From NCBI RefSeq assembly GCF_014191255.1, contig NZ_JACHWH010000018.1, forward strand, positions 1 through 64,000: 64,000 bases of DNA. The letters run 5' to 3'. Origin of the DNA: Amycolatopsis bartoniae (lineage in GTDB: Bacteria; Actinomycetota; Actinomycetes; Mycobacteriales; Pseudonocardiaceae). A program made the translations under genes and the position numbers. The first letter of the stretch is position 1; each line of letters starts with the position of its first letter. Below, one piece after another: positions 37,052 through 64,000 of the stretch. Below the pieces are notes generated by a model. It was not told where the DNA came from, searched no databases, and saw only the letters and a list, made by a program, of their open reading frames with translations.

Positions 37052-38887
37052 TCAGCCGGTGATCGCGGTGACCAGGCGGGCGACCGCGCGGTCGAGGGAG
37101 TCCATGCCGTCCAGCACGACTTCGGCCGCCTCGGGGGGTTCGTAGCCCTGCCCGACGCCCGTCATGGCCGGGAGCGTGCCGGAGTTCGCCCTGGCGTACA
37201 GGCCCTTCGGGTCGCGGCGGGCGCACTCCGCCAACGGCGTGTCCACCCACACCTCGACGAAATCCCCTGGGGCGAACAGGTTCCTGGCCGCGTCGCGGTC
37301 CGCGCGGAACGGCGAGACGAGCGCGACGATGACCGTCAGCCCGGCGTCGAGCATCAGGGCGGCCACCTCGGCGACGCGGCGGACGTTCTCGGCGCGGTCG
37401 GCCGGCGTGAAGCCGAGGTCGCGGTTCAGCCCGCCGCGCACGTTGTCCCCGTCCAGCACGTAGGTGTGCACGCCCAGGCCGTGCAGCCGGCGCTCCAGCG
37501 CGTCGGCGATCGTGGACTTGCCCGCGCCCGGCAGGCCGGTGAGCCACAGGACCCGGCCGCGCTGTCCCTTCAGCTGTTCGCGCGCGGCCCGGTCGATGGC
37601 GTAGTCCTGCGGCACCACGTCGGGTGGCCCGGCCGGCCTGCGTACCATGCCCGCGCCGACGGTGTCGCCGGTGCGCCGGTCCACGAGCAGGAAGGAGCCG
37701 GTGTCGTGGTTGTCCGTATAGGACTCCAGGAACACCGGCGCCGCGATCGTCACGTCGACCGTGCCGATCTCGTTGCGCACCAATGAGGTCGCGGGATGTT
37801 CTTGTCCGGTTTGGACGTCCAACCGGGATTTGAGCGAGGTCACCTCGGCGGGGACCGACCGGGGCCCGGCGAGCAGCAGGTAACCGGCGCCGACCGCCAG
37901 GGGTTCGGCTCCGGTCCAGACCACCGTCGCGGTCACGGCGGTGGTGAGGGCGGGGGAGTCGCCGCCCGCCGGTACGAGCACGTCGCCGCGGTGCACGTCG
38001 ACGTCGCCGGAGAGGACCACCGTCACCGGCGTGCCGGGGACCGCGTGGTCCAGGTCGCCCGCGGGGCCGAGCAGCCGGTCGACGGTGGTGACCGCGCCCG
38101 TGCCCGCGACGGTCACCGCGTCACCGATGCGCAGCGCCCCGCCGACCACCGTGCCCGCCGGTCCGCGGAAGCGGTCCGTGCGGATGACGTACTGCACGGG
38201 AAGCCGCGCGCCCGTGAGCTTCGCGGTGCGGTCCCCGGTCTTCGGCCGCCAGCCGGAGAGCAGGTCGAGGAACGTCGGCCCGTCGTACCACGGCAGGTTC
38301 GGCGACGGCGTGGTCACATTGTCCCCGCGCACCGCGCTGACCGGCACCACGTGCAGCTCCTCGACGCCGAGATTCGCCGCCACGGCACGGATTTCCGCCG
38401 CGATCCGGTCGAACACGGCCCGGTCGTAGCCGACCGCGTCGAGCTTGCTGACCGCCACGAGCACCGAGCGCACCCCCATCGTGGTGCACACGGCCAGGTG
38501 GCGGCAGGTCGCCGGCCGCACGCCGAGCACCGCGTCGACGAGCAGCACCGCCAGGTCCGCGGTGGCGGCGGCGACCGCCATGTTGGCGCCGTGCTGGTCG
38601 TGCCCCGGTGCGTCGGCGATGATCACCCGCCGGCCGCCGGGCAGGTCGAGGAAGCGGTAGCCGACGTCGATGGTGATGCCCTGCTCGCGTTCGGCCTCCA
38701 GCCCGTCGGTGAGCAGCGAGTAGTCGATCTCCCCCGGCGGCACGACCGAACCGCCCCGGCGGGTCCGCCGCGCCTGCTCCAGCTGGTCGGCGGGCACGCT
38801 GCCCGTGTCGGCCAGCAACCTGCCGATCAGTGTGGACTTGCCGTCGTCGACCGAGCCGCACGCCACGAGCCGCAGCACCGCGCCCAT
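37052..38887 (-). CDS. cysNC: sulfate adenylyltransferase large subunit fused to APS kinase (CysNC)
   Basis: The 611-residue protein starts with a translation-factor-type GTPase: P-loop ACGSVDDGKSTLIGRLL, EREQGITIDVGYRF, ADAPGHDQHGANM (diverged from the usual DTPGHEQYTRNM) and VSKLDAVG, then beta-barrel domains. From about residue 435 an APS kinase domain follows: LWLTGLPGAGKSTIADALE, LDGDNVRGGLNRDLGF and SPFRADRDAARNLF. CysN with CysD makes APS from sulfate and ATP, driven by GTP; CysC phosphorylates it to PAPS, the sulfuryl donor. The ATG overlaps the cysD stop (TGATG). No APS/PAPS reductase or sulfite reductase gene lies nearby, so the module as seen stops at PAPS. Confidence 0.93.
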   Translation of the reverse strand: MGAVLRLVACGSVDDGKSTLIGRLLADTGSVPADQLEQARRTRRGGSVVPPGEIDYSLLTDGLEAEREQGITIDVGYRFLDLPGGRRVIIADAPGHDQHGANMAVAAATADLAVLLVDAVLGVRPATCRHLAVCTTMGVRSVLVAVSKLDAVGYDRAVFDRIAAEIRAVAANLGVEELHVVPVSAVRGDNVTTPSPNLPWYDGPTFLDLLSGWRPKTGDRTAKLTGARLPVQYVIRTDRFRGPAGTVVGGALRIGDAVTVAGTGAVTTVDRLLGPAGDLDHAVPGTPVTVVLSGDVDVHRGDVLVPAGGDSPALTTAVTATVVWTGAEPLAVGAGYLLLAGPRSVPAEVTSLKSRLDVQTGQEHPATSLVRNEIGTVDVTIAAPVFLESYTDNHDTGSFLLVDRRTGDTVGAGMVRRPAGPPDVVPQDYAIDRAAREQLKGQRGRVLWLTGLPGAGKSTIADALERRLHGLGVHTYVLDGDNVRGGLNRDLGFTPADRAENVRRVAEVAALMLDAGLTVIVALVSPFRADRDAARNLFAPGDFVEVWVDTPLAECARRDPKGLYARANSGTLPAMTGVGQGYEPPEAAEVVLDGMDSLDRAVARLVTAITG

Positions 38888-39825
38888 CAGAAGTAGCCCT
38901 CCGACTTCTTGGTCTCCAGCGACGTGCCGCCGTCGCCGTCGATGAACCGGCCCATCCGCTCCGAACGGCGGTCGGCCCGCGTCTCCTCGATCAGCTCGTC
39001 GAGGGTGGTCGCCGTCGACTCCACGGCGGCGGTGAGCGGGTAGCACCCGAGGGTGCGGAACCGGACCCAGCGGTGCTCCGGCGTTTCCCCTGGCCGCAAC
39101 GGAAAGCGGTCGTCGTCGACCATGAGGAGCGCGCCACCGCGCTCGACCACCGGGCGCGGCGCGGCGAAGTAGAGCGGTACCACCGGGATGTCCTCACGGC
39201 GGATGTACCGCCAGATGTCGAGCTCGGTCCAGTTCGACAGCGGGAACACCCGCAGCGACTGCCCCTCGGTCAGCTGGGTGTTGGGCCAGCGCCAGAACTC
39301 CGGGCGCTGCCGGCGCGGGTCCCAGCGGTGGCCGGGTTCACGGACGGAGAAGATCCGTTCCTTGGCCCGCGAACGCTCTTCGTCCCGCCGGGCACCGCCG
39401 ATCGCCGCGTCGAACCCGTGCGTGTCGAGCGCCTCGCGCAGGGCCAGGGTCTTCATGATCCGGGTGTACTCGTGCGCGCCGTGGGTGAACGGGGTGACGC
39501 CGCGGGCGGCCGCCTCGGTGTTGGTCTGCACCAGCAGGTCCAGACCCAGGCGGCGGGCGGTGGCGTCGCGGAACGCGATCATCTCCCGGAACTTCCAGCG
39601 AGTGTCCACATGCAACACCGGGAACGGCAGTCGGCCCGGTGCGAACGCCTTGGCCGCCAGGTGCAGCAGCACCGAGGAGTCCTTGCCGATCGAGTACAGG
39701 AGCACGGGGTTGCGGCACGTGCCCGCCGTCTCCCGCAGTACGTGGATCGCTTCGGCCTCCAGTGCGTCCAGCAAAGCCGTGGTGTTTTCGGAAACCGTCC
39801 CGGAAGTCGCTGTCTTCGCGTCCAC
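38887..39825 (-). CDS. cysD: sulfate adenylyltransferase small subunit CysD
   Basis: The 312-residue PAPS-reductase-like protein has the PP-loop motif [50 protein letters not shown] and [24 protein letters not shown], and ends in [11 protein letters not shown], all typical of CysD. It transfers AMP to sulfate in complex with CysN. GTG 39825 starts the cysD-cysNC operon, which is divergent from a TauE-type exporter gene. The 73-nt intergenic region holds an Rrf2/IscR-like dyad. Confidence 0.95.
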
Positions 39826-40756: not shown

Positions 40757-40763
40757 TCCGGGC

Positions 40764-41478: not shown

Positions 41479-41523
41479 ATGGGGGGCGCAGGGTGGGGGA
41501 CGACGCCGGGACCACCCGGATGA
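41479..41523 (+). CDS. 14-codon leader ORF coupled to the StrR-like regulator
   Basis: ATG 41479 lies eight nt after a near-ideal GGAGGA (41465-41470) and encodes MGGAGWGTTPGPPG. Its stop TGA (41521-41523) overlaps the regulator ATG (41520-41522) as ATGA. The regulator itself has no good ribosome site, so it is probably translated by ribosomes finishing this leader. Gly, Pro and Trp content could make it sensitive to ribosome speed. It is too short to judge by homology. Confidence 0.5.
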   Translation: MGGAGWGTTPGPPG

Positions 41524-42497
41524 CCGTGGACGCCCACGGGGAGCCGTGGCCGGATCCGAAACTCGAAGCGCTACCGGTGGAACTCGTGCCGATCGCCCGG
41601 CTCACCGTCGCGGGCTCCCCGCGGGTCGGCGGTGCGGACCCCGAGCACATCCGGGTTCTCGCCGGGACCTCCACCGTGTTCCCCCCGATTCTCGTGCACC
41701 GCCCCACGATGCGGGTGATCGACGGCGCGCACCGGGTCCACGCGGCCCTGCTGCGCGACGAACGGCAGATCGAGGTGCGGTACTTCGACGGATCCGAGGA
41801 CGACGCGTTCGTCCTGTCCGTCAGGCTCAACGTCACGCACGGGCTGCCGTTGTCCCGCGCGGACCGCAACTCCGCGGCGGAGAAGATCCTGCACGCGCAC
41901 CCGGACTGGTCCGACCGCGCGGTCGCGGCGATCTCCGGGCTCTCCGACAAGACGGTCGCCTCGATCCGGCGCCGGACGAGTGCGGAATTTCCGCAGTTGT
42001 CACATCGGGTCGGCCGCGACGGCCGCGTGCGTCCCAACAACGCGGCGGCCGGGCGCAGGCGCGCGGCCGCCTACGTCCAGCACCGGCCCCACGCCCGGCC
42101 ACGGGAGATCGCCGAGGCGGCGGGGATCTCCGTCACGACCGCTCGCGATGTCCGCGGCCGTGTTCGCGAGGGCCTGCACCCGGTCCCGGCAGGCCGTGCC
42201 GGTGCGGGCACGGCCGAGCGGGCCGCGGACGCCGGGCCGGAGGGCGGCGCGGACGGCGCCCTGTTCTCCTCGCTGCGGCGGCTGCGCAGCGATCCTTCGT
42301 TCCGCCACCACGAAACCGGGCGGATGCTGCTCCGCCTGCTCGACACCAGCATGCTCATCGCCGTCGAGCAGGACCGGCTCGTCGACGGGGTGCCGGTGCA
42401 CGGGACCGACGCGGTGAAGCAGGTGGCCACCCAGTACGCGCAGGCCTGGCAGCGGTTCGCCGACCAGCTGGAGAACCGGGGCCGGATGTTCGGCTGA
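41520..42497 (+). CDS. StrR/ParB-like pathway-specific regulator (first copy)
   Basis: The 325-residue protein has an N-terminal ParB/sulfiredoxin-like domain (LPVELVPIARLTVAG, DPEHIRVLAG, FPPILVHRPTMRVIDGAHRVHAALL, VRYFDGSEDDAFVLSVRLN) and a helix-turn-helix at about 130-152 (WSDRAVAAISGLSDKTVASIRRR), then VGRDGRVRPN and a second HTH-like part (PREIAEAAGISVTTARDVRGR). This is the StrR family, which activates aminoglycoside, aminocoumarin and glycopeptide clusters (StrR, NovG, Bbr, Dbv4, Tei15*). The C-terminal LLRLLDTSMLIAVEQDRLVDGVP matches the second copy at 46151 in layout. It probably activates cluster promoters. Start choice is supported by coupling to the leader ORF; a GTG at 41493 is an alternative. 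Confidence 0.85.
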   Translation: MTVDAHGEPWPDPKLEALPVELVPIARLTVAGSPRVGGADPEHIRVLAGTSTVFPPILVHRPTMRVIDGAHRVHAALLRDERQIEVRYFDGSEDDAFVLSVRLNVTHGLPLSRADRNSAAEKILHAHPDWSDRAVAAISGLSDKTVASIRRRTSAEFPQLSHRVGRDGRVRPNNAAAGRRRAAAYVQHRPHARPREIAEAAGISVTTARDVRGRVREGLHPVPAGRAGAGTAERAADAGPEGGADGALFSSLRRLRSDPSFRHHETGRMLLRLLDTSMLIAVEQDRLVDGVPVHGTDAVKQVATQYAQAWQRFADQLENRGRMFG

Positions 42498-43429: not shown

Positions 43430-44845
43430 TCAGGCCGGCAGGAGGTCCGCTCCGGTCCGGTTCGTCAGGAAGGCACTCGTCAGCGCCGTGGACGCCAGCG
43501 CCATGAGCACCAGCATCGTGAACGTCCTCGGGTCGATGATCCCGGCGCTCAGGCCGATGTTCAGCACGATGATCTCGGTCAGGCCACGGCAGTTCATGAG
43601 CCCGCCGACCCGCAGGGCCTCGCGCCCCGGCATGCCCATCGACCGGGCGGCCAGCGAGGTCGAGCCGATCTTGGCGGCGATCGCGACCACGACGACGACC
43701 AAGCAGCACGCCCACATCCGCACGTCGCCGCCGAGCAGCGTGAGGTCGGTCCGCAGGCCGCTCGTGGCGAAGAACACCGGCAGCAGCAACGGCTGCAGCA
43801 GTCCCGCCGCCGACTGGAAGCGGCGCGCGGTCACCGACTCCGCGGGGGTGATCACGCCCAGCGCGAACGCGCCGAACACCGCGTGCACGCCGCTGAACTC
43901 GGTGGCCACGGCCGCCAGCAGCACGACGACCAGCAGCGGCCCCAGCCCGAGCGCGGCCGCCCACCGCCTGCGGGTGCGGTGCAGCCAGACGCCGAGCCCG
44001 GTGAGCGCCGCGATCACGGCGGCCGTCAGCGACACCGTCGCGACGACGGCGGCGCCGGAACCGGCACCGGCCAGCGCGAGCACCACCGAGAGCAGGCACC
44101 ACGCGAGCACGTCGTTCATCGCCGCGGCGGCCAGCACCAGCGAGGCCAGGCGGGTCCCGTTCCACCCGCGGTCCTCGACGATCCTGGCGAGCACCGGCAG
44201 TGCCGTGATGCTCAGGGAGAGCCCGACGAACAACGCGAAGGGCACCACCTGGACGCCTCGCGGCGCGAAGGTCGCGTATCCGAGCACGCCGAGCGTCGCG
44301 CCGCAGAGCAGCGGGATCACCATGCCCGCGTGGCTGATCACCAGCAGCGTCGAGGTGCGGCCCGCGAGCGCCCGCGGGCGCACCTCCAGTCCCGCCAGGA
44401 AGACGAAGAGCACCACGCCGAGCTGCGCCACGATGTCGAGCGTCGACGTCACGTCGGGGGCGAGCAGTGTCCGGCCGACGGCGGGCCAGCACGCCTGCAG
44501 CACCGACGGGCCGAGCAGGATGCCGCCCGCGATCTCGCCGATCACCGCGGGCTGCCCGAGCCTGCGCACCGCGAACCCGGTCAGCCGGGTGGCGCCGACG
44601 ATCACCGCGAGCGCGGCGAGCACCCGCGCCAGCGGGGTGAGGCCGGGCAGCGGACCGTGCCCGGTGCCGGCCGCCGTCCCGCCCGTCCAGTGGCTCGCGA
44701 GCAGCGCGACGACCAGTCCCGCGGGCAGGACCACGAGCAGGAGGTACAGCAGGATCGTCCGTGCGGCGGGTGGGGTGCGGGCCGGCTTCCCCGGCAGGAA
44801 GGCGCTCTGTGCCGCCGAAGCGGGGGACGGGGACCGGGACTCCAA
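43430..44845 (-). CDS. Na+/H+ antiporter (CPA2 family) of the glycopeptide cluster
   Basis: The 471-residue protein has about 13 hydrophobic helices with CPA2 features: [72 protein letters not shown] and [30 protein letters not shown]. Glycopeptide clusters such as those for balhimycin, chloroeremomycin and teicoplanin carry a homologous antiporter-type gene; its role in production or export is not settled. It starts at TTG 44845, unusual but supported by GGAGGT (44856-44851) five nt upstream and by the lack of any ATG/GTG in the first 30 codons. A perfect hairpin lies in its 5' leader. It points away from the main NRPS operon. Confidence 0.87.
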
Positions 44846-47206: not shown

Positions 47207-47569
47207 ATGGCGGTGCGGGCGCTGCGCGGCGCCGTGCAGGTCGAAGCCGACGAGCCGGACGCGATCATCGAGGGTACGACGGAGCTCGTCGCCGAGGTCA
47301 TGGACCGCAACGCGCTCACGACCGACGACGTGATCAGCGTGCTCTTCACCGCGACTCCCGACCTCAGTTCCGAGTTCCCCGCGGTGGCCGCCCGCAAGCT
47401 CGGTTTCCACGAGGTGCCGCTGCTGTGCGCGACGGAGATCGCGGTGCCGGGGGCGCTGCCCCGGGTGGTCCGGCTGCTGGCGCACGTCGAGACCGACCGG
47501 CCGCGCTCGGCGATCCGCCACGTCTACCTGCGTGGTGCCCAGGCGCTGCGGCTGGACATCGCCCAGTGA
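47207..47569 (+). CDS. aroH: AroH-type monofunctional chorismate mutase
   Basis: The 120-residue protein matches the trimeric Bacillus AroH fold: VRALRGAVQVEADEPDAI, DDVISVLFTATPDLSSEFPAVAARKLGFHEVPLLCATEI, VRLLAHVETDRPRSAIRHVYLRGAQALR. It converts chorismate to prephenate, the branch point to tyrosine and 4-hydroxyphenylglycine. AroH-type mutases are much rarer than the AroQ type in actinomycetes. Sitting directly before prephenate dehydrogenase and in the NRPS operon, it probably acts as a cluster-dedicated, feedback-free supply enzyme. Its stop is 20 nt before the dehydrogenase start. Confidence 0.88.
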   Translation: MAVRALRGAVQVEADEPDAIIEGTTELVAEVMDRNALTTDDVISVLFTATPDLSSEFPAVAARKLGFHEVPLLCATEIAVPGALPRVVRLLAHVETDRPRSAIRHVYLRGAQALRLDIAQ

Positions 47570-47588: not shown

Positions 47589-48707
47589 GTGAGCGTGGAG
47601 CGGGTCCTCGTCGTCGGCACCGGGCTGATCGGCACCTCGGCCGCGCTGGCCCTGCGCCGGCAGGAGGTCGCGGTCTACCTCTCCGACATCGACGCGCACG
47701 CCGTGCGGCTGGCCCGTGAGCTCGGCGCGGGCCGGGAGTGGACGGGCGAGGACGTGGACGTGGCGCTGATCGCCGTGCCCCCGCACGTCGTGGGGGAGCG
47801 GCTGGCCGATCTGCAGAAGCAGGGACCCGCGCGCGCCTACACCGACGTGGCCAGCGTCAAGGTCGACCCGATCGCCGACGCGGAGCGGCTGGGGTGCGAC
47901 CTGACCACGTTCGTGCCGGGGCACCCGCTCGCCGGGCGGGAGCGCTCCGGCCCGGCCGCGGCCCGCGTCGACCTGTTCCGCGGCCGCCCCTGGGCGCTCT
48001 GCCCCGGTCCGGAGGCCGACGCGGGCGCCGTGCGGCTGGCGCGGGAACTGGTGTCGCTGTGCGGCGCGGAGGCCGTCACGGTGGGGGCGGGCGAGCACGA
48101 CTCGGCGGTCGCGCTGGTGTCGCACGCCCCGCACGTGGTGGCGTCGGCGGTGGCGGCGAGCCTGGCGGGCGGCGACGACCTCGCGCTGGGCCTCGCCGGG
48201 CAGGGGCTGCGGGACGTCACGCGCATCGCCGCCGGAAATCCCTTGCTGTGGCGGATGATCCTCTTCGGCAACGCCCTGCCGGTGGCGGGGGTGCTCGAAC
48301 GCGTCGCGGTCGATCTCACCGAAGCGGCCTCGGCGTTGCGGTCCGGCGACCTCGACGCCGTGACGGATCTGTTGCGGCGCGGCGTGCGCGGTCACGGCCG
48401 GATCCCGGGCAAGCACGCGGCACAGGGGAACGGGTGCGCCGTGGTGCAGGTGGTGCTGCGGGACCGGCCGGGAGAGCTGGCCCGGCTGTTCGCCGCGGCG
48501 GAGCGGGCGGGCGTGAACATCGAGGACGTCCGCCTGGAGCACTCGGCGGGCCTGCCCGCCGGGGTGGCCGAGGTGTCGGTGCGCCCGGAGGACAGCGGCA
48601 GGCTCGCCGGGGTCTTGCGGTATCACGGCTGGCACGTGCCGCCCGTGCCCGAAGCCGGCCCAGCGAGTCCCGTGACCGCGGGATCCGAACGTGGTCCGAA
48701 CCATTAG
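47589..48707 (+). CDS. pdh: prephenate dehydrogenase with C-terminal ACT domain
   Basis: The 372-residue protein has an NAD-binding VLVVGTGLIGTSAALALRR, TDVASVKVDPI, FVPGHPLAGRERSGPAAARVDLFRG and VTVGAGEHDSAVALVSHAPHVVASA, the TyrA core, and a C-terminal ACT-like domain (VVLRDRPGELARLFAAAERAGVNIEDVRLEH). It oxidatively decarboxylates prephenate to 4-hydroxyphenylpyruvate, the shared precursor of tyrosine, beta-hydroxytyrosine and Hpg. A pdh gene is a standard member of glycopeptide clusters. Among clustered GTG codons, 47589 gives the best distance from GGGGAG; 47586 and 47595 are alternatives. The ACT domain could bind tyrosine; whether it is still sensitive is not visible. Confidence 0.92.
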   Translation: MSVERVLVVGTGLIGTSAALALRRQEVAVYLSDIDAHAVRLARELGAGREWTGEDVDVALIAVPPHVVGERLADLQKQGPARAYTDVASVKVDPIADAERLGCDLTTFVPGHPLAGRERSGPAAARVDLFRGRPWALCPGPEADAGAVRLARELVSLCGAEAVTVGAGEHDSAVALVSHAPHVVASAVAASLAGGDDLALGLAGQGLRDVTRIAAGNPLLWRMILFGNALPVAGVLERVAVDLTEAASALRSGDLDAVTDLLRRGVRGHGRIPGKHAAQGNGCAVVQVVLRDRPGELARLFAAAERAGVNIEDVRLEHSAGLPAGVAEVSVRPEDSGRLAGVLRYHGWHVPPVPEAGPASPVTAGSERGPNH

Positions 48708-48850: not shown

Positions 48851-50794
48851 GTGGATGTGGTGATGCGCATCGGGGCGGTGCGGAAGAGCGCCGACGATCC
48901 CGATCCGTGGGAGACCGACATCCGGCCGGGCACGGTGCGCAGGGTGCTCGGCTACTTCCGCCCGCACCTCGGCGAGGTGGCGCTCTTCGTGGTCGTCGCC
49001 CTGCTGGAGTCGCTGACCGTCGCCGCGAACCCCTTGCTGCTCAAGCAACTCGTGGACAACGGCATCCTGAAGAACTCGCTCGGGACCGTGGTCGCGATGG
49101 CCTGCCTGGCCGCCGGGCTCGCCGTGGTGGGCGCGCTGCTGTCGCTGGTGTCGTCCTACATCGCCGGGCGGATCGGCCAGGGGGTCACCTACGACCTGCG
49201 GGTGCAGGCGCTCGACCACGTCCGGCGGCTGCCGATCGCGTTCTTCACCCGCACCCAGACCGGGGTGCTGGTCGGCAGGCTGCACACCGAACTGATCATG
49301 GCGCAACAGCAGTTCGCGCAGATGCTGATGGCGGCCACGAGCGCGGTCACGGTCGTGCTGGTGCTGGCCGAGCTGATCTACCTGTCCTGGCTCGTCGCCC
49401 TCATCACGCTGGTGCTGATCCCGCTGTTCCTCGTGCCCTGGGTCTACGTGGGACGGGTGATCCAGCGGCGCACCGGACGGCTGATGGACGCCAACACCGG
49501 CCTCGGCGGGCTGCTGCAGGAGCGCTTCAACGTCCAGGGCGCGATGCTGTCCAAGCTCTTCGGCCGCCCGGACGAGGAGATGGCCGAGTACGAGGGGCGC
49601 GCCGCGCGGATCCGCCGGATCGGCGTGGGCCTGTCCATCTACACCCGGCTGTCCTTCGTGATGATGACGCTGATGGCCTCGCTCGCCACGGCGCTCGTCT
49701 ACGGCGTCGGCGGCGGGCTCGTCCTCGCCGGTGCGTTCCAGCTCGGCACGTTGGTCGCCATCGCCACCCTGCTCGGGCGGCTGTTCGGGCCGATCACCCA
49801 GCTGTCGGGCATGCAGGCGACCGCGCAGACCGTCGTGGTCAGCTTCGCCCGGATCTTCGAGCTGCTGGACCTGGAGCCGCTGATCCGGGAACGCCCGGGC
49901 GCCGTCGCGCTCCCGGAGAACGTGGCGCCGGACATCGAGTTCGAGCACGTCCGGTTCCGCTATCCCACCGCCGACGAGGTGTCGCTGGCCTCGCTGGAAC
50001 ACCTGCGGACCGAACGGGAGCGCGGGGAGGTGACGCGGGACGCCTTGCGGGACGTGAGCTTCCGCGTGCCCGCGGGCACCCTCACCGCGCTCGTCGGCCC
50101 GTCCGGTGCCGGCAAGAGCACGATCACGCACCTGGTGTCGCGGCTGTACGACCCGGTGGGCGGGGCCGTCCGCCTCGGCGGGCACGACCTGCGTGACCTC
50201 ACCTTCCGCTCGGTGCGCGAGACGGTGGGTGTGGTGAGCCAGGACGCCTACCTGTTCCACGACACGATCCGGGAGAACCTGCTCTACGCCCGTCCCACCG
50301 CCACCGAGGACGAGCTGATCGAGGCGTGCAAGGGCGCCCAGATCTGGGATCTGGTCGAGTCCCTCCCCGGCGGGTTCGACACCGTCACGGGCGACCGCGG
50401 CTATCGCATGTCGGGCGGGGAGAAGCAGCGGCTGGCCATCGCCCGGCTGCTGTTGAAGGCACCCACGGTCGTCGTGCTCGACGAGGCCACCGCGCACCTG
50501 GACTCCGAGTCCGAGGCGGCGGTCCAGCGGGCGCTCAAGACCGCGTTGCGCAGCCGCACCTCGCTGGTGATCGCGCACCGGCTGTCGACGATCCGCGAAG
50601 CCGACCAGATCCTCGTGATCGACGGCGGGCGGGTCCGCGAGCGCGGGACGCACGAGGAGCTGCTGGCCGAGGGCGGTCTCTACGCGGAGCTGTACCACAC
50701 GCAGTTCTTCAAGGCTGGCGGCAACGGGACCCGGCCGGACCCGGACGGCGAGCCCGTGCCGGTGCACCAGGTGGTCCGGGGAGGGGGAGAATGA
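48851..50794 (+). CDS. ABC exporter (fused membrane and ATPase domains), Tba-like
   Basis: The 647-residue half-transporter has six membrane helices in residues of about 35-320 and an ATPase domain (about 365-615) with Walker [10 protein letters not shown] (about 417-425), signature [15 protein letters not shown] (about 520), Walker [14 protein letters not shown] and the switch histidine in [10 protein letters not shown]. The signature reads SGGEK instead of SGGQ. Homologues (Tba in balhimycin) export the finished glycopeptide. GTG 48851 follows GAGAGGGG. Its stop overlaps the NRPS ATG (ATGA), so the exporter and the first NRPS subunit are translationally coupled. Confidence 0.93.
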
Positions 50795-53700
50795 ATTCCG
50801 CAGCGCAGGCCCCGCCGACGGTGCTGGAGCTGTTCGCCCGGCAGGTGGACCGGACGCCCGGCGCGGTGGCCGTGTCCGACGGGGACCGGGTTCTGACGTA
50901 CCGCCGGCTCGACGAGCTCGCAGGCCGGCTGGCCGGGCGCCTGGCCGGCCGGGGCGTCCGCCGCGGCGACCGCGTCGCGGTGGTGCTGGACCGGTCGGCC
51001 GAGCTGGTGGTGGCGCTGCTCGCCGTGTGGAAGGCGGGGGCGGCGTACGTGCCCGTGGACGCCGCCCATCCCGCGCGGCGGGTCGAGTTCCTGGTGACGG
51101 ATTCGGGCGCGTCGCTGGTGCTGTGCTCGGCCGCGACGCGTGACGTCGTGCCGGAGGGGACCGGATCGGTCGTCGTGCCGGACGAGGCCGCGCGTGACGC
51201 GGTGACGGTCGCGGTGGACGGCCGTGATCCGGCGTACGTCATGTACACCTCCGGCTCGACGGGAACCCCGAAGGGCGTGGTCGTGCCGCACCGCAGCGTG
51301 GCGGAGCTGGTCGGCGAGCCCGGCTGGGCGGTGGCACCCGGCGACGCGGTGCTGGTGCACGCGCCGCACGCCTTCGACGCGTCCCTGTTCGAGATCTGGG
51401 TGCCGCTGGTGTCGGGTGCCCGGCTGGTGATCGCCGAACCGGGACCGGTGGACGCCCGGGGCCTCCGGAACGCGGTCGCGGCCGGGGTGACGCGGGCGCA
51501 CCTGACCGCGGGGAGCTTCCGCGCGGTGGCGGAGGAGTCGCCGGAGTCGTTCGCGGGGCTGCGCGAGGTGCTGACCGGCGGTGACCTGGTGCCCGCGCAC
51601 GCGGTGGAGCGGGTCCGGGAGGCCTGCCCCGGGGTGCGGATCCGGCACCTGTACGGCCCGACGGAAGCGACGCTGTGCGCGACCTGGCACGTGCTCGAAC
51701 CGGAGGACCCGCTGGGGTCGGTGCTGCCGATCGGCCGTCCGCTGCCGGGCCGCCGCGCCCGGGTGCTCGACGCGTCGTTGCGGCCGGTGGAGCCGGGCGT
51801 GGTCGGTGAGCTGTACGTCGCCGGTGCCGGTCTGGCGGACGGCTACCTGGACCGGCCGGGGCTGACGGCGGAGCGGTTCGTGGCGGATCCGGCGGCGACG
51901 GACAACACAGCGGCGGGAAGCGCCTCCGGCGGGGGTGGTGGTCGGGCGACGGGTGGGCGGATGTACCGGACCGGCGACCTCGCGCGGTGGAACGCGGACG
52001 GGGAGCTGCTGTTCGCGGGCCGGGCCGACGACCAGGTGAAGATCCGCGGCTTCCGGATCGAGCCGGGCGAGGTCGAGGCCGCGCTGACCGCCCAGCCGGA
52101 CGTGCACGAGGCCGTGGTGGTGGCGATCGACGGGCGCCTGATCGGCTACGTGGTGGCGGACGCGGATCCCGCTCTCGTCCGCGAGCGGCTCGCAGCGGTG
52201 CTGCCGGAGTACCTGGTCCCGGCCGCCGTGCTCACAGTGGACGCGTTGCCGCTGACCGGCAACGGCAAGGTGGACCGGGCGGCCCTGCCCGCACCCGATT
52301 TCGCGGCGGCCGCCACGGGCCGCGAGCCGGCCACCGAGGCGGAACGTGTCCTGTGTGGACTGTTCGCCGAGCTACTCGGCCTGGACCGGGCCGGTGTCGA
52401 CGACGACTTCATCGAGCTGGGCGGCGACTCGATCGTCGCGGTGCGCCTGGCGGCACGGGCGGCCAAAGCCGGCCTGCTGGTGACGCCCTCCCAGGTCTTC
52501 GGGGAGCGGACCCCCGCGCGGCTGGGAGCCGCGGCGCGGGCCGTACCGGCCGGACGACCCGGCGAGGGCCCGCTGATCACCCTGACCGCGGAAGACGAGG
52601 CGGAGCTGGCGGCCGCCGCCCCCGGCGCGGCGGAGATCTGGCCGCTGGCACCGCTGCAGGAGGGGTTGCTGTTCCAGGCGACCCTCGACGACCGGGGGTT
52701 CGACGTCTACCAGGCGCAGTGGCTCCTGGAGCTGACCGGGCCGCTGGACGTGGCCCGGCTGCGGGCCGCGTGGGACGCGGTCTTCGCCCGGCACGCCGAG
52801 CTGCGGCTCAGCTTCCACCGGCTCGCGTCGGGCACGACGGTGCAGGCCGTGCACGGGCACGTCACCCTGCCTTGGCGCGAGGTGGACCTGACCGGGGCCG
52901 GCGACGTCGACGCAGCCACCGACGCCCTCATCAAACGGGAGCAGGAGGAGCGGTTCGATCTCGCCAGGGCGCCGCTGTTCCGGCTGGTGCTGATCCGCCT
53001 CGGCGAGGACCGGCACCGCCTGCTGGTCGTCAACCACCACATCCTGACCGACGGCTGGTCGGTGGCGGTCATCCTCAACGAAGTGTCCGAAGTGTACGCG
53101 GCCGGGGAGCGGTTGCCGGACCGGCGCGTCACCGCCTCCTACCGGGACTACCTGGCGTGGCTGGGCCGGCAGGACAAGGACGCGGCACGCGCGGCCTGGC
53201 GAACGGAGCTCGCCGGCCTCGACGAGCCCGCGCTGATCGCGAAACCGGCCGCGGCGACGGCCTACGACTACCGCGTCACCCACCTGCCGCCGGAGCTGCA
53301 CACCCGGCTGCTGGAGTTCGTCCGCGACCACGGGCTGACCCTGGCCACGGTGGTGCAGGGGGCGTGGGCGCTGGTGCTGGCGCGGCTGGTGCGGCGGACC
53401 GACGTGGTGTTCGGTACCACGGTCGCCTGCCGTCCCGCGGAGCTGGCGGGCGTGGAGTCGATGCCGGGGCTCATGATGAACACGGTGCCGGTCCGGGTGC
53501 CGCTGGACCCCCGGCAGTCCATTGTGGACCTGCTTACCGGCCTGCAGCGGCGGCAGGTGGCGCTGATGCCGCACCAGCACCTGGGGCTACCGGAGATCCA
53601 GAAGGCGGCGGGGCCGGGCGCGGGGTTCGACACGCTGCTGGTGTTCGAGAACTACCCGAGGGACTTCGCCGGCTCGTTCACGTACCTGGGCACGATCGAG

Positions 53701-56700
53701 GGGACCCACTACCCGCTGACCATCGGCATCATCCCGGGAGACCGGTTCCGGATCCAGCTCGGCTACCGGCCCGGGCAGGTCAGCCAGGCCGTGGCCGAGT
53801 CGGTGCTGGAGTGGTTCGCCGGTGCGCTCGCCACCGTGGTCGCCGATCCGTCCGGTCCCGTGGGGCACGCCGGTGTCGGCGAGGCCTCGGTGTCGCACGG
53901 CGACCCGGCGTTGCTGAGCGGGGAGCCGTTGCCGGCGCTGGTCGGGCGGATGGTGGCGGAGCGGCCGGACGCGGTGGCGGTGGCGGACGCCGACGGCGAG
54001 CTGTCGTACGGCCGGCTGTGGGACCGGGCGGTGAGGTTCGCCGCCGTGTTACGGGCGCACGGGGTCGGGTCCGAGTGCCGGGTCGGTCTGGTGGTGGGGC
54101 GGTCGTCCTGGTGGGTGGCCGGGATGCTGGGCGTGTTGCTGGCGGGCGGCACGTTCGTCCCGGTGGACCCGGCGTACCCCGACGAGCGCAAGCAGTGGAT
54201 CTTCCGCAGCGCGGACCCGAGGTGGGTGGTGTGCGCGGCGAAGACGCGAGAGGCGGTGCCGGCGGAGTTCGCGGACCGCTTGGTGGTGATCGACGAGGTG
54301 GACCTGGCCACGGGGCCCGATGCGGAGTTGCCGCGGGTGGATTCCCGTGCCGCGGCCTACGTGATCTACACGTCCGGTTCGACGGGCACCCCGAAGGGCG
54401 TCGTCGTGACGCACGCGGGGCTGGGGAACCTGGCGATGGCGCACATCGACCGGTTCAGGGTCTCGCCGTCGTCGCGGGTCCTGCAGTTCGCGGCGCTCGG
54501 CTTCGACACCATCGTGTCCGAGGTGATGATGGCGCTGTTGTCGGGGGCGACGCTGGTGATGCCGCCGGAGCAGGACCTGCCGCCGCGGGCGTCGCTGACC
54601 GAGGCGCTGGAGCGGTGGGATATCACGCAGGTGAAGGCGCCGCCGTCGGTGCTGGCCACCGCCGAGGCGCTGCCGGCACGGGTGGAGACGGTGGTGGCGG
54701 CGGGGGAGCTCTGCCCGCCGGGCCTGGTCGACCGCCTGTCGGCGGACCGGCGGATGATCAATGCCTACGGCCCGACCGAGACCACGATCTGCGCCACGAT
54801 GAGCAGGCCGCTCAGCCCCGGCCAGGACCCGATCCCGTTCGGGGAACCGGTTCCGGGGGTCCGCGGTTACCTGCTGGACGCGTTCCTCCGCCCGTTGCCG
54901 CCGGGGATCACCGGTGAGCTGTACCTGGCCGGGATCGGCGTGGCTCGCGGTTATCTGGGCCGCCCGGCGCTGACCGCCGAGCGGTTCGTCGCCGATCCCT
55001 TCGTGCCCGGTGAGCGGATGTACCGGACGGGCGATCTGGCGTACCGGACGGACCAGGGCGAGCTGGTGTCCGCCGGGCGGGCCGACGACCAGCTCAAGAT
55101 CCGGGGGTTCCGGGTCGAACCCCGTGAGATCGAGTTCGTCCTGTCCAGTGACCCGCGGGTCACTCAGGCCACGGTGACCGTCCGCGAGGGCCGCCTGGTG
55201 GCCTACGTGTCGCCGGGCGACGTCGATCCGCGCGCGCTGCGGGAGGATCTCGCGTCGCGGCTGCCGCAGTACATGGTGCCCGCCGCCGTGGTGCCGCTGG
55301 ACGCGCTGCCGCTGACGGCGCACGGGAAGATCGACCGGCGCGCACTGCCCGATCCCGACTTCTCGGCCGGGAAGGTGAGCCGGGAGCCGGCCACCGAGGC
55401 CGAGCGGATGTTGTGCGGGTTGTTCGCCGGAGTGCTCGGCCTGGAGCGGGTCGGTGTCGACGACAACTTCTTCGAGCTGGGCGGGGACTCGATCCTCTCG
55501 ATGCAGCTGACGGCGCGGGCGCGGCGAGCGGGACTGACGTTCACCGCGGCGGACGTCTTCGAGGGGAAGACGCCGGAGCGCATCGCGCAGCTGGCGGCGG
55601 AACCGTCGCCGCCGGAGCGCGGCCGTGCCGCCGGGGCGGACGGCGTGGGCGCTGTCGCGTGGACGCCGGTGATGCGGATGTTCGGGGATTCCGTTGCGGC
55701 GCCGGGCTTCGCGCAATGGGTGGTGCTGGGCGCGCCCGCGGACCTGACCGAGGAGGCGCTGGTGCGGGGACTGTCCGCGGTGGTGGACACGCACGACATG
55801 CTGCGAGCCCGGGTGACCGGCGGCGACGGGAGCCGGCGCCTGGTGGTCGGTGAGCGCGGGTCGGTGGACGCGGCCGGGCTGGTCACGCGGAGAGGAGTGG
55901 ACGGCGGTTCACCGGACGAGGTCGTGCAGGCTGCCGTGCCGGAAGCCGTGCGCGGGCTGGATCCGGCGGCCGGGGTGCTGGTGCGGGTGGTGTGGGTGGA
56001 CGCCGGGCCGGAACGGCTCGGACGGCTGCTGGTGGTGGTGCACCACCTGGCGGTCGACGGGGTGTCGTGGCGGATCCTGACGTCGGACCTGCAGGTCGCG
56101 TGTGAGGCGGCGGCCGCGGGGCGGAAGCCGGTGCTGGAGCCGGTGGACGTGTCGTTCCGGCGGTGGGCGGGCCTGCTGAAGGAATGGGCGGTCTCCGCGG
56201 AACGGGCCGGAGAACTTCCGGCGTGGCAGGCGATTCTCGGTCAGGAGGACCAGCCGGCCGGTGCGCGGGCCCCGGTGGGGGAGGTGCGCTCGCGGGCGTG
56301 GGTGGTGCCCGGTGCCGACACGGCGGTGCTGGTGGGACGCGCGCCGGTGGTGTTCCACTGCGGTGTGCACGAGGTGCTGCTGGCCGGGCTGGCCGGAGCG
56401 GTGGCGCGCCGGCGTGGCGGGGACGTGGTGCTGGTGGACGTGGAAGGTCACGGCCGCCATCCCGCCGGGGAAATGGATCTGTCCCGGACCGTGGGCTGGT
56501 TCACCAGTACCCATCCGGTGCGGCTGGACGTGGCGGGGATCGACCTGGCGGACGCGCTGGCCGGTGGCCCGGCTGCCGGGACGTTGCTGAAGGTGGTCAA
56601 GGAACAGTCGCGGGCGGTGCCCGGCGACGGGCTCGGCTACGGGTTGCTGCGGTACCTCAACGAGGACACGGGACCCGTCCTGCGGGCTCTGCCGCCGGCC

Positions 56701-57086
56701 CGGATCGGGTTCAACTACATGGGCCGGTTCGCCGCCGGGGACCAGCACGCTGTGCGGGCGTGGCAACTGGCCGGGGACATCGGCAGTGCGATGGATCCGG
56801 GCATGGACCTGCCGCACGCGCTGGAGGTCAACGCGCTCGTCCGGGATCTGCCGGACGGGCCGGAGCTGACGCTCATGGCGGAGTGGCGGGACGGCCCGCT
56901 CGACGAGGCCGAGATCGGCCGGCTGGGCCAGGCGTGGCTGGACATGTTGTCCGGGCTGGCCCGGCAGGCGGAGGACCCTGCCGCGGGGGGACACACCGCT
57001 TCCGACTTCGGCCTCCTCGACCTGGACCAGGACGAGATCGAGAGCTTCGAAGCGATAGCAGCGGAACTCAGCGAAGGCCGGACATC

Positions 57087-57090
<4 letters not shown>
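50791..57090 (+). CDS. glycopeptide NRPS subunit 1: A-T-C-A-T-E (modules 1 and 2)
   Basis: The 2099-residue protein starts directly with an adenylation domain (about 10-500), so it is the loading subunit. A1 residues read D-A-F-H-L-G-L-L-C-K, the 4-hydroxyphenylglycine code. T1 serine is S547 (LGGDSI). C2 (about 615-1040) keeps HHILTDG at 749. A2 (about 1045-1540) reads D-T-S-K-V-A-A-I-C-K, which I recall from position 2 of glycopeptide synthetases (Tyr/beta-hydroxytyrosine). T2 serine is S1567. E2 (about 1622-2060) keeps [10 protein letters not shown] at 1751, so residue 2 should be D. Module 1 has no E domain. A1 carries a Gly/Ser-rich insert of about 17 residues before RMYRTGD. The C-terminus ([14 protein letters not shown]) looks like a docking segment. 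The two-module layout fits TcpA/StaA rather than three-module BpsA/CepA. Confidence 0.92.
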
Positions 57091-60251
<3,161 letters not shown>

Positions 60252-60253
60252 AC

Positions 60254-60303
60254 CTCCGCTGCCTTGGACGCATTGTCCGGGCTGGTGCGGCAGCGGAGAA
60301 TTT
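60254..60303 (+). other. E-domain-tail fossil and hairpin between NRPS subunits 2 and 3
   Basis: The 93-nt gap holds TTGGACGCATTGTCCGGGCT and following bases, which read LDALSGLVRQ in one frame, close to [10 protein letters not shown] at the end of the E domain of subunit 1 (56939-56974). The same stretch is flanked by perfect 10-bp arms CTCCGCTGCC (60254-60263) and GGCAGCGGAG (60289-60298). The region is untranslated. Confidence 0.45.
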
Positions 60304-60344
60304 CAGCTGAACGTTGTGCCCTTCGCTGATCGAGGGAGATATAG

Positions 60345-63300
60345 ATGGCTCAGTCGCGGATCGAGGAAATCTGGCCGCTGTCGCCACTGCAGGCCGGTTT
60401 GCTCTTCCACGCGGTCTACGACGGCGAGGGGCACGACGTCTACATCGGACACTGGATCCTGGACCTGGACGGGCCCGTGGACGCGGACAGGCTGCGCGTG
60501 GCGTGGGAGGCGCTGCTGGCCCGGCACGCCCCGCTCCGGGCCTGCTTCCGGCAGCGCCGGTCGGGTGAGACGGTGCAGATCATCCCCCGGCAGGTGGAGC
60601 TGCCGTGGCGGGTGGCCGACCTTTCCCACCTCGACGATCCCGGGCAGGCCGTGCGGGAGCTGGCCGAGGAGGACCGGACGAAGCGGTTCGACCTCGCGCA
60701 GGCGCCGCTGCTGCGGCTGACCTTGATCCGTCTCGCCGGTCACCGCCACCGCCTCGTGGTGACCTGCCACCACACGATCCTGGACGGCTGGTCGATGCCC
60801 ATCGTGCTCGACGAGCTGTCGCTGCTGTACGCGGCCGGCGGTGACCCGGCGAACCTGCCGGAAGTCACGTCGTACCGGGAATACCTCGCGTGGCTGAGCC
60901 GGCAGGACAAGGACAGGGCGCTGTCGGCGTGGGTGGCGGAACTGCGGGGCGCCGAGGAGCCGACGCTCGTGGCGCCCGCCGATCCGGGGCGAGCGCCCGG
61001 CGTGCCGGAGAGCGTCACGGCCGAGCTGCCGGCGAACCTCACGCGAGCGCTGGACGAACTGGCCCGCGGCCACGGGCTGACGCTGAACACGGTCGTGCGG
61101 GGCGTGTGGGCGTTGGTGCTGGCGCAGCTGACGAACCGCACGGACGTGGTGTTCGGAGCGGTGGTGTCGGCGCGCCCGCCGGACCTGCCGGGCGTGGAGG
61201 GGATGGTGGGGCTGTTCCTCAACACCGTGCCGGTGCGCGTGCGGTTGCGTGGCTCGGCGCCGGTCGTCGAACTGCTGGCGGAGCTGCAGAAACGGCAGTC
61301 GGCGCTCATCCCGGACCAGTTCGTGGGGCTGGCGGACATCCAGCAGGCGGCCGGTCCTGGCGGCGTCTTCGACACGCTGGTCGTCTTCGAGAAGTTCCAC
61401 CGCGAGCCCGCCGGGCCGGACTCCGCCCGCCCTTTCGGTGTCCGGGTGCACCAGGGCCGGGAAGCCGCGCACTACCCGCTGACGCTGGTCGCCGTTCCGG
61501 GCGAGTCGATGCTGGTCAAGCTCGACTACCTGCCGGAGCTCTTCGACGAGACCACCGCGCTCGCCGTCGTGGAGCGGTTCACGGGAATTCTGCGGGAGTT
61601 GACGGAAGCACACGACGTCACCGTGGCCGAAATCGACGTGACGACCGCGGCCGAGCGCGAGCTGGTGCGGGACTGGGGAACCGGGTCCACTATGGAGGGT
61701 CGGCCGCTCGCACTGGAGCTGTTCGCCCGTCAGGTGGAGCGCCGCCGCGGGGAGCCGGCCGTCTGTGCCGACCGGACGATGTCGTACGGGGAGCTGGCCG
61801 AGCGCGCGGAAAGGCTCGCCGGATATCTGCGTGGCCGGGGAGTTCGCCGTGGCGACCGGGTGGCCGTGGTGATGGACCGCTCGCCCGACCTGGTCGCGGC
61901 GTTGCTCGCGGTGTGGCAGGCGGGCGCGGCGTACGTGCCGGTGGATCCCGCCTATCCGGTGGAGCGCGTGAAGTTCATGCTCGCGGACGCCGAACCGGCG
62001 GCAGTGGTGTGCGACGACGCGCGCCGGGCCGTCGTGCTGGACACCGGACTCGACCCGATCGTCCTGGACGACCCGGAAACGCGGCAGGCGGTGGCGCGGT
62101 GCCCTCGCCTGTCCGCCGGTGTGACCGCTGACGACACCGCCTACGTGATGTACACGTCGGGCTCGACGGGAACGCCGAAGGGCGTCGCGGTGTCGCACGG
62201 CAACGTCGCGGCGCTGGCCGGGGAGCCGGGTTGGCGGATCGGACCCGGAGACGCGGTGCTGATGCACGCCTCGCACGCGTTCGACATCTCCCTGTTCGAG
62301 TTGTGGGTGCCGCTGCTGTCGGGCGCCCGGGTGGTGCTCGCCGGTTCGGGTGCGGTGGACGGCGAGGCGCTGGCGCGTCACGTGGCCGGTGGGGTCACGG
62401 CGGCGCACCTGACCGCGGGTGCCTTCCGGGTGCTGGCCGAGGAGTCGCCGGAGTCGGTCGCCGGGCTGCGTGAGGTGCTGACCGGCGGGGACGCGGTACC
62501 GCCCACGGCGGTGGCGCGCGTGCGGCGGACGTGCCCGGACGTGCGGGTGCGCCACCTCTACGGCCCGACGGAGGCCACGCTGTGCGCGACGTGGTGGCTG
62601 CTCGAACCGGGTGACGAGACCGGGGCGGTGCTGCCGATCGGACGGCCGCTGCCGGGACGGCGGGTCCACGTCCTCGACGCGTTCCTGCGCCCCGTGCCCG
62701 CCGGGGTGACGGGCGAGGTGTATGCCGCCGGAAGCGGTGTGGCGCAAGGATATTTCGGTCGTCCGGGATTGACGGCCGAGCGGTTCGTGGCCGACCCGTT
62801 CTCAGCGGGCGGGAGGATGTACCGCACCGGGGACCTGGCGTACTGGACGGATCGCGGTGAGCTGGTGTTCGCCGGACGGGCCGACGACCAGGTGAAGATC
62901 CGCGGCTACCGCGTGGAGCCGGGCGAGGTCGAGACGGTTCTCGGTGGCCTGCCCGGCGTCGGCCAGGCCGTGGTGTCCACAAGGGACGGTCAGCTGATCG
63001 GTTACGTGGTCGCCGAGGCGGGGCAGGACATCGACCCGGTGCGGCTGCGCGAACAGCTCGCCGGGACGCTGCCCGAGTTCATGGTTCCGGCCGCGATCCT
63101 GGTGCTGGACGAGTTGCCGTTGACGGTCCACGGGAAGGTCGACCGGCGGGCACTGCCCGAACCGGACTTCACCTCGAAGGCCACCGGTGGCGAGCCGGCC
63201 ACCGAGGCCGAGCGGATCCTGTGCGGGGTGTTCGCCGAGGTTCTCGGTCTGGCGCGAGTCGGGGCCGAGGACAGCTTTTTCGAGCTGGGCGGGGACTCGA

Positions 63301-64000
63301 TCTCGTCGATGCAGGTGGCCGCTCGCGCCCGCCGGGAGCGCATTTCCCTCACCCCGCGGCAGGTGTTCGAGCACCGCACCCCGCGGCGGTTGGCGGCCCT
63401 CACGCAAGAAGCCCCGGCGGCACCAGGGTCCACAAGGGATTCCGGCGTGGGGGAGATCCCGTGGACGCCGGTGATGCGTGCCCTCGGGGACGCGGCGGTG
63501 CGCCCCGGTTTCGCGCAGTCGAGGGTCGTCGTCGCCCCGGCGGACCTGGACCGGGACGCGCTGGTGACCGCCCTGCAAGCCGTGCTGGACGTGCACGATC
63601 TCCTGCGGGCACGGGTGGAGCCGGATGGACGGCTGGTGGTGGCCGAACCTGGCGGGGTGGAGGCGGCCGGCCTGGTGACGCGGAGAGCGGCCGGGTCCGG
63701 GAACCTCGACGAGATCGCCGAGCGCGAGGCCAGGACGGCGGCCGGCATGCTGGACCCGTCGGCGGGAACGCTGGCGCGAGTCGTGTGGGTGGACGCCGGT
63801 AACGCCGAGCCGGGCCGGCTGGCGTTCGTGGTGCACCACCTGGCGGTCGACGCGGTCTCGTGGGGAATCCTGCTGCCGGACCTGCGCGCGGCCTACGAAG
63901 GGACCCCGGCCCTCGAACCCCCGGCCACCTCGTACCGGCAGTGGGCGCGGCGGCTGACCGAGCAGGCGACCAGCGCGAGCACCGTCGCCGAGCTCGACCA
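60345..64000 (+). CDS. glycopeptide NRPS subunit 3: C-A-T-E... (module 4, cut by window)
   Basis: ATG 60345 follows GAGGGAGA and opens with [20 protein letters not shown]4 (about 5-440) keeps [10 protein letters not shown] at about 141-150. A4 (about 455-955) reads D-I-F-H-L-G-L-L-C-K, a textbook 4-hydroxyphenylglycine code. T4 serine is S985 (LGGDSI). An E domain begins at about 1040 ([12 protein letters not shown]) with [10 protein letters not shown] at 1164, so residue 4 is expected to be D-Hpg, the central residue of glycopeptides. The frame is open at the right edge after 1218 codons; TcpC/StaC homologues continue with modules 5 and 6. The 93-nt gap before this gene is the only untranslated space within the NRPS run. 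Confidence 0.92.

What the first reader, a model, noticed from the sequence alone, without database searches (positions are those of the whole stretch)
50791..64000. Start of a teicoplanin/A47934-type glycopeptide synthetase, predicted Hpg - Tyr/Bht - Dpg - Hpg
Residues read at the ten specificity positions give Hpg, Tyr/Bht, a Dpg-like code and Hpg for modules 1-4. E domains follow modules 2 and 4 but not 3. The split 2+1+(3) subunits match TcpA/B/C or StaA/B/C. Seen: domain order, motifs and codes. Known: code tables and glycopeptide architecture. Inferred: product class. The product may be new.
Basis: partly seen in the sequence, partly recalled or inferred. Interest (0 to 1): 0.85.

Follow-up and report, generated by a model that had tools for sequence, protein, structure and literature searches.

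The report
Published sulfated glycopeptide antibiotic gene cluster
The window holds the first half of a gene cluster for a vancomycin/teicoplanin-like antibiotic that matches, almost gene for gene, one described in 2024 from Amycolatopsis bartoniae; a possible new detail is an extra pair of genes beside it that could supply activated sulfate for decorating the antibiotic.

Summary
At 50791-64000 lie glycopeptide synthetase modules 1-2 (A-T-C-A-T-E), 3 (C-A-T) and the start of a three-module subunit; the contig (78,898 b) completes modules 4-6 and a module 7 with X and TE domains. Codes read Hpg-Bht-Dpg-Hpg-Hpg-Bht-Dpg. All four subunits are reciprocal best hits of those at the A40926 locus (71-78% aa). 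The rest starts at the end of contig C14: a sulfotransferase end, OxyC, halogenase, mannosyltransferase, HpgT, HmaS, DpgA-D, Bht genes, vanHAX, vanRS. This order is that of the published aba cluster of Amycolatopsis bartoniae DSM 45807 (PMC11727664), a predicted type III, sulfated glycopeptide; its lack of Hmo is seen here too. So the reading is right and already known, though the species is inferred. OxyE and OxyB were not seen; they should lie in the gap between contigs. Possibly new: a cysNC-cysD-tauE-Rrf2 block just before the published border, with no match above 51% in 18 other genomes of the genus, which may supply PAPS for sulfation.

The parts
50791..57090 (+). NRPS modules 1-2 (A-T-C-A-T-E; Hpg, Bht), abaA counterpart
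   Evidence: 71% aa to N. gerenzanensis counterpart, reciprocal best
57087..60251 (+). NRPS module 3 (C-A-T; Dpg-like code), abaB counterpart
   Evidence: 74% aa over 987 residues, reciprocal best
60345..64000 (+). NRPS modules 4-6 (C-A-T-E-C-A-T-E-C-A-T; Hpg, Hpg, Bht), abaC counterpart; continues to C18:72392 outside the window
   Evidence: 75% aa, reciprocal best. Further on the contig: module 7 C-A-T-X-TE at 72385-77982, MbtH-like frame about 77994-78203, OxyA 5' part 78311-78898
48851..50794 (+). ABC exporter (MsbA-like), aba7 counterpart
   Evidence: 75% aa, reciprocal best
47589..48707 (+). prephenate dehydrogenase, aba6 counterpart
   Evidence: 79% aa, reciprocal best
47207..47569 (+). 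chorismate mutase type I, aba5 counterpart
   Evidence: TIGR01796 and PF07736
45950..47128 (+). StrR-like regulator, aba4 counterpart (start uncertain: 45950 by ORF, 46232 by the gene caller)
   Evidence: 80% aa over 333 residues (60-392) to a frame in the A40926 locus; only HTH by Pfam; the name StrR comes from the paper's order
43430..44845 (-). Na+/H+ (Kef-type) antiporter, aba3 counterpart
   Evidence: PF00999
42664..43230 (+). VanY D,D-carboxypeptidase, aba2 counterpart
   Evidence: PF02557; 46% over 90 aa to the VanY-N gene, reciprocal best
41493..42497 (+). second StrR-like regulator, aba1 counterpart (frame open from 41322)
   Evidence: 46% aa over 307 residues to the regulator at 45950-47128
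37052..38887 (-). CysNC: sulfate adenylyltransferase large subunit fused to APS kinase (candidate PAPS supply, outside the published border)
   Evidence: TIGR02034, TIGR00455, PF01583; best match 51% among 18 other genomes of the genus
38887..39825 (-). CysD: sulfate adenylyltransferase small subunit (same block)
   Evidence: TIGR02039
39899..41243 (+). TauE-type sulfite exporter 39899-40756 and Rrf2-family regulator 40764-41243 (same block, looser)
   Evidence: PF01925, PF02082, TIGR00738

Best explanation
The stretch is the start of the synthetase of a type III, halogenated and sulfated glycopeptide (dalbaheptide) cluster: the aba cluster of Amycolatopsis bartoniae or of a very close strain. 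Shown by sequence: a seven-module synthetase with Hpg-Bht-Dpg-Hpg-Hpg-Bht-Dpg codes, E domains in modules 2, 4 and 5, X and TE domains in module 7, and tailoring, precursor and self-resistance genes at the facing ends of two contigs of one genome. Inferred from known glycopeptide biochemistry (recalled): the heptapeptide is cross-linked on module 7 by P450s recruited by the X domain, chlorinated, methylated, sulfated and mannosylated, exported, and would bind the D-Ala-D-Ala end of lipid II, while VanHAX protects the producer. Inferred too: C18 and C14 are neighbours, and OxyE, OxyB and most of the sulfotransferase genes sit in the gap between them. Hpg supply is in doubt because no Hmo was found.
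For: Domain order and codes; 4 of 4 NRPS subunits reciprocal best hits to the N. gerenzanensis locus at 71-78% aa; X-TE stretch 72% identical to it with a degenerate HRxxxDD motif. The P450 at the end of C18 is nearest to PDB 5hh3 'OxyA protein', that on C14 nearest to 1ued (1ued as vancomycin OxyC is recalled). C14 begins with the C-terminus of a Teg12-like sulfotransferase directly before OxyC. The gene order of C18:41493-78898 and C14:1-35390 agrees with Table 1 of PMC11727664 for the rows outside the gap, but for aba17/18 and aba23 (see evidence against). Draft A. bartoniae was reported with vanY beside the StrR gene and vanHAX-vanRS elsewhere, as in this two-contig assembly. Four full-length FMN oxidases outside the Hmo clade here, four reported there. 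Genome 7.757 Mb here, 7.836 Mb there.
Against: The species is not proven: the published genome CP174150 was in no collection I searched, and no 16S gene was found in this assembly. The paper lists GT2 (aba17) and GT39 (aba18) as two genes; here they are one open frame of 1047 aa. The gene in the aba23 slot (357 aa), called GT1 there, has no Pfam or NCBIfam family here and only weak PDB glycosyltransferase matches (best E 4e-4). OxyB and OxyE were not seen: that part of the A40926 locus has no match longer than 427 b in this genome and only cross-matches to other Oxy genes on C18 and C14. A fifth, partial match of the Hmo query (C9:223878, 36%, E 1e-6) was left out of the count of four.
Confidence: 0.93

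Rival explanations
1. It is a type IV lipoglycopeptide cluster (teicoplanin/A40926), as half of the reader's title says.
For: The locus found nearest by DNA is A40926 of N. gerenzanensis, 81% over 72% of the query and 83% over module 7 and OxyC/halogenase.
Against: No tblastn match of n021 (acyltransferase place), n039 or n040 (hexose-oxidase place) on C18 or C14:1-60000 (these three names are recalled from gene order). Module 2 code is Bht-like, and Bht genes are present.
Confidence: 0.04
2. It is a vancomycin-type (type I) cluster with aliphatic residues 1 and 3.
For: Module 2 code is identical to that of A. orientalis module 2.
Against: M1 and M3 codes are Hpg- and Dpg-like, unlike those of A. 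orientalis. Module 3 has a 66-78% counterpart in 9 of 12 comparators, but only 57% full-length matches (59% at most over part) in A. orientalis, A. decaplanina and WAC 04229.
Confidence: 0.01
3. It is an aba-like cluster of a different species with the same gene order.
For: GT2 and GT39 are one frame here and two genes in the paper; the aba23 slot is not clearly a GT1.
Against: The aba21-type gene was found in 3 of 390 family genomes, this one included, and in the two others not beside glycopeptide genes in the stretches fetched.
Confidence: 0.07

Closest known systems
aba cluster, Amycolatopsis bartoniae DSM 45807 (PMC11727664)
   Same: Same gene order from the first StrR gene and VanY through abaA-D, MbtH and OxyA, then OxyC to VanR; same heptapeptide prediction; no Hmo; ASST, Dyp peroxidase, two PQQ-like proteins
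   Different: GT2 and GT39 in one frame here; aba23 slot not recognised as GT1 here; aba9 3' end to most of aba14 missing from this assembly; DNA itself not compared
TEG cluster (uncultured soil clone D30)
   Same: Sulfotransferase fragment nearest to Teg12; the paper reports orthologs of the ASST and aba21 genes there (Teg19, Teg18)
   Different: Not held as a cluster here; known only through the paper and PDB entries
A40926 locus of Nonomuraea gerenzanensis
   Same: Four NRPS subunits, OxyA, OxyC, halogenase, HpgT, HmaS, DpgA-D, PDH and ABC exporter are reciprocal best hits
   Different: Gene order; Tyr-type code in module 2; Hmo, n021, n039 and n040 present there; no reciprocal counterparts of the Bht genes or VanHAX in the stretch fetched
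Glycopeptide cluster of Kibdelosporangium aridum (G159/G012, equated by equal contig number and length)
   Same: HpgT, HmaS, DpgA-D, DAHP synthase, Bhp/BpsD/OxyD and a PQQ-like gene beside DpgA
   Different: Has Hmo between HmaS and the PQQ-like gene; here a PQQ-like gene and an antiporter lie there

Membership tests
Dalbaheptide (type I-IV glycopeptide) cluster | Seven-module NRPS with E domains in modules 2, 4, 5 | tested here: met
Dalbaheptide (type I-IV glycopeptide) cluster | X domain and TE in module 7 | tested here: met
Dalbaheptide (type I-IV glycopeptide) cluster | Cross-linking P450s OxyA, OxyB, OxyC | tested here: inconclusive
   OxyA (cut) and OxyC seen; OxyB not found, expected in the gap
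Dalbaheptide (type I-IV glycopeptide) cluster | Hpg pathway: HmaS, Hmo, HpgT | tested here: not met
   HmaS and HpgT present; no Hmo: own best 49% and outside the clade of the 13 comparator Hmos (99/96), while 12 of 12 comparators have one at 56-59%. The published aba cluster lacks it too. The contig gap was not testable
Dalbaheptide (type I-IV glycopeptide) cluster | Dpg pathway DpgA-D and Bht genes | tested here: met
   Bht genes 83-87% to K. aridum counterparts
Type III glycopeptide | Aromatic residues 1 (Hpg) and 3 (Dpg) | tested here: met
   By code only; the M3 code is Dpg-like and identical to that of Kutzneria CA-103260, itself not experimentally assigned here
Type III glycopeptide | OxyE for the ring between residues 1 and 3 | tested here: inconclusive
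   Not found; gap of the assembly
Type IV glycopeptide | Acyltransferase for the fatty side chain | tested here: inconclusive
   No tblastn match of n021 on C18 and C14:1-60000; the contig gap was not testable and the identity of n021 is recalled
aba cluster of A. bartoniae | Gene order of Table 1 | tested here: met
   aba10-aba13 not visible, aba14 only as a C-terminal piece, aba17/18 fused, aba23 unassigned
aba cluster of A. bartoniae | Sequence identity to CP174150 | not testable with these tools
   record not in the collections I searched

The most novel reading that the evidence does not exclude
The cluster reaches further upstream than published: a cysNC-cysD pair foreign to the genus, with a TauE exporter and an Rrf2-family regulator (37052-41243), is a dedicated sulfate-activation module that makes PAPS for this cluster's sulfotransferases.
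Probability: 0.4. Interest if true: 0.4.

Novelty: already known. Interest (0 to 1): 0.28.

Why it matters
Glycopeptides are last-line antibiotics and this cluster carries rare tailoring enzymes, but it has been described. What the session adds is independent support for the missing Hmo, the placing of the assembly gap inside the sulfotransferase row, and a candidate donor-supply module: if PAPS supply travels with sulfated glycopeptide clusters, it would help anyone trying to express such a cluster in another host.

Tried and rejected
Unreported cluster glycosyltransferase: a GT1 gene at C14:39316-40542 is the reciprocal best hit of a GT1-place gene of the A40926 locus (53%), and its first 228 residues match GtfB best. 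But 121 of 297 family genomes (this one included) have a match at E <= 1e-60, eight others at 70-81% (list cut by the tool). I took it for an ordinary GT1; the neighbours of those eight were not examined.

PQQ-like proteins (C14:17046-18644, 20126-21709) as a replacement for Hmo: in K. aridum such a gene sits beside Hmo, so both occur together; 72 of 297 family genomes have a relative at E <= 1e-60, and in 8 of the 9 neighbourhoods examined it is not beside Hpg or Dpg genes; both proteins start with a signal-like stretch, by eye; inactivation of the homolog kmy26 did not affect kendomycin B (PMC8708025, passages). Kept as a weak idea only. An Hmo elsewhere in the genome: four full-length FMN oxidases, none in the Hmo clade.

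aba21-type gene as a marker of further such clusters: 3 of 390 genomes, this one included; the other two not beside glycopeptide genes in the stretches fetched. A first Hmo tree read several genes on the wrong strand and ended with an error; discarded and redone. 16S search of the assembly found nothing. One paper search with four terms found nothing. tblastn of CysNC against plasmids: 593 records, 316 covering 80% or more, the best listed 54% and from proteobacteria; 32 records with a best place at 60-80% were not listed and not looked at.

Full report
What is there. The window is bases 1-64000 of contig C18 (78,898 b) of a 7,757,008-b genome in 23 contigs. A simple gene caller of my own, whose starts are approximate, gives on one strand of C18 a 2099-aa NRPS at 50791-57090, a 1054-aa NRPS at 57087-60251, a 4015-aa NRPS at 60345-72392, a 1865-aa NRPS at 72385-77982 and a P450 cut by the contig end, 78311-78898; an MbtH-like frame of 69 aa lies at about 77994-78203 (read). 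Motifs give A-T-C-A-T-E, C-A-T, C-A-T-E-C-A-T-E-C-A-T and C-A-T-X-TE (Pfam). The T motif of module 7 was not caught by the pattern but Pfam finds that domain.

Specificity. With positions taken by alignment to PheA (a stretch typed from recall), the codes are M1 DAFSLGLLCK, M2 DTSKVAAICK, M3 DPFNQGTFCK, M4 DIFTLGLLCK, M5 DAYLLGLLCK, M6 DASTLGAICK, M7 DPYLGGTLCK. On comparators the same script gave DTSKVAAICK for A. orientalis module 2 and DLTKLGEVCK for its module 3, and DPFNQGTFCK for module 3 of Kutzneria sp. CA-103260. A40926 module 2 reads DASTVAAVCK. Naming codes Hpg, Bht and Dpg rests on these comparisons, on the prediction printed for aba and on recalled code tables.

Kinship. Against the N. 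gerenzanensis locus (record NZ_LT559118.1, filed as a plasmid, with a VanY-N gene at 100%; the A40926 producer) the four NRPS subunits are reciprocal best hits at 71, 74, 75 and 78% aa; so are PDH, ABC exporter, the OxyA part, OxyC, halogenase, HpgT, HmaS and DpgA-D. Gene names on that unannotated record are by homology or recalled. Of those 13, 12 could be searched further (L039 was not held; L010 was too large). Module 3 has a 66-78% match in 9 of 12, in frames of 1055-1524 aa, and in 3 of 12 (A. orientalis, A. decaplanina, WAC 04229) only 57% full-length and 57-59% partial matches (list cut by the tool). That group of 9 is not all Dpg at module 3: K. philippinense, Umezawaea and Actinokineospora have other codes.

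The rest of the cluster. DNA of the A40926 locus led to contig C14. C14:1-264 encodes the C-terminal end of a sulfotransferase, best match Teg12 3mg9, E 8e-22. Then follow OxyC (1ued, E 4e-211), halogenase, a GT2-GtrA-GT39 protein of 1047 aa, an arylsulfotransferase of the ASST family, a methyltransferase, a protein with weak beta-propeller matches, a Dyp peroxidase, an unassigned protein, a GT39 mannosyltransferase-like protein, HpgT, HmaS, PQQ-like, antiporter, PQQ-like, DpgA-D, DAHP synthase, hydrolase, A-T protein, P450, VanH, D-Ala-D-Lac ligase, VanX, sensor kinase and regulator. That C18 and C14 adjoin is inferred: their ends do not overlap.

Already published. A paper search with 'arylsulfotransferase' listed 3 papers, one of them the description of the aba cluster of Amycolatopsis bartoniae DSM 45807 (PMC11727664; I read its introduction, sections 3.1, 3.2, discussion and tables, and passages; no supplements). 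Its Table 1 lists in order StrR, VanY, KefB, StrR, CM, PDH, ABC, abaA-D, MbtH, OxyA, OxyE, OxyB, three sulfotransferases, OxyC, halogenase, GT2, GT39, ASST, methyltransferase, hypothetical, Dyp, GT1, GT39, HpgT, HmaS, PQQ, KefB, PQQ, DpgA-D, DAHP synthase, thioesterase, NRPS, P450, VanH, VanA, VanX, VanS, VanR. This is C18:41493-78898 followed by C14:1-35390, less the interval from the 3' part of OxyA to the last sulfotransferase. A row of like P450 and sulfotransferase genes is a natural place for an assembly to break (inference). An earlier paper (PMC8698665, one passage) reports vanY beside the StrR gene and vanHAX-vanRS elsewhere on the chromosome, and the 2024 paper says the draft had the cluster on several contigs. 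I could not align to CP174150, so the species is inferred.

Differences. GT2 and GT39 are one frame here. The aba23-slot protein has no Pfam or NCBIfam family and only weak PDB glycosyltransferase matches. No OxyB or OxyE: the matching part of the A40926 locus has no hit longer than 427 b in the genome, against 83% over 2.7 kb for OxyC and halogenase.

Hmo. The N. gerenzanensis protein at the Hmo place (FMN-oxidase family by NCBIfam; called Hmo by homology and place) was sought in this genome and 12 comparators: best match 56-59% in 12 of 12 comparators and 49% here. In 11 of 12 the match is on the NRPS contig within about 65 kb of it, in 1 (A. thailandensis) on another, short contig. In a tree of 27 rows the 13 Hmos, with a second Kutzneria copy, fall on one side of a branch with support 99/96, and the four full-length oxidases of this genome on the other. 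A fifth, partial match here (C9, 36%) was left out. This agrees with the paper's explanation for the silent pathway.

A possible addition. Upstream, cysNC (sulfate adenylyltransferase large subunit with APS kinase), cysD, a TauE exporter and an Rrf2-family regulator fill 37052-41243, ending 78 to 249 b before the first aba gene, by the start chosen. The genome also has a cysNC-cysD pair at C2:174564-177291, a CysN match without the kinase part at C2:415433, and an APS-kinase-like gene at C1:540035. Among 19 genomes of the genus, this one included, the window CysNC has no match above 51% in the other 18, while the C2 copy groups with the genus's usual CysNC (30 of the matches were in the tree). 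Against uniqueness: one relative, G254, has a pair at 50-51% (CysNC) and 66% (CysD) that joins the window copy in the tree, both on long branches, and ends beside a gene I did not identify. The aba paper's main text has no occurrence of 'adenylyl', 'PAPS' or 'cysN', and one library search for glycopeptide, sulfotransferase, sulfate adenylyltransferase and biosynthetic gene cluster returned 0 papers. Sulfotransferases of the Teg12 kind use PAPS (recalled), so a dedicated donor supply is plausible; it is inferred from place and foreignness, and an unrelated sulfur-metabolism island fits the sequence as well.

Verdict. A correct reading of a known kind of cluster, already in print; interest low, with one modest new lead.

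Noticed in passing
37052-41243: cysNC-cysD (minus strand) and tauE-Rrf2 (plus strand) block, CysNC unlike the genus's usual copies, directly before the published cluster border.
   Followed up: partly
L017:17046-18644 and C14:20126-21709: Two PQQ-like proteins flank an antiporter between HmaS and DpgA; in K. aridum one such gene sits between Hmo and DpgA, and kendomycin clusters carry a homolog.
   Followed up: partly
L017:3225-6368: GT2, GtrA and GT39 parts in one 1047-aa frame, where the paper lists two genes.
   Followed up: no
28295-32355: MurT/GatD lipid II amidation genes next to a two-component system, about 9 kb from the glycopeptide cluster; probably ordinary cell-wall genes.
   Followed up: no
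G000:C17:18918-50302 and G000:C1:795197-816522: Two further NRPS regions in the same genome by DNA likeness, and a GT1 gene cut by the end of C17.
   Followed up: no
L010, L011, L012: The 11.85-Mb N. gerenzanensis record is filed as 'plasmid I' although it is chromosome-sized and carries the A40926 locus.
   Followed up: no
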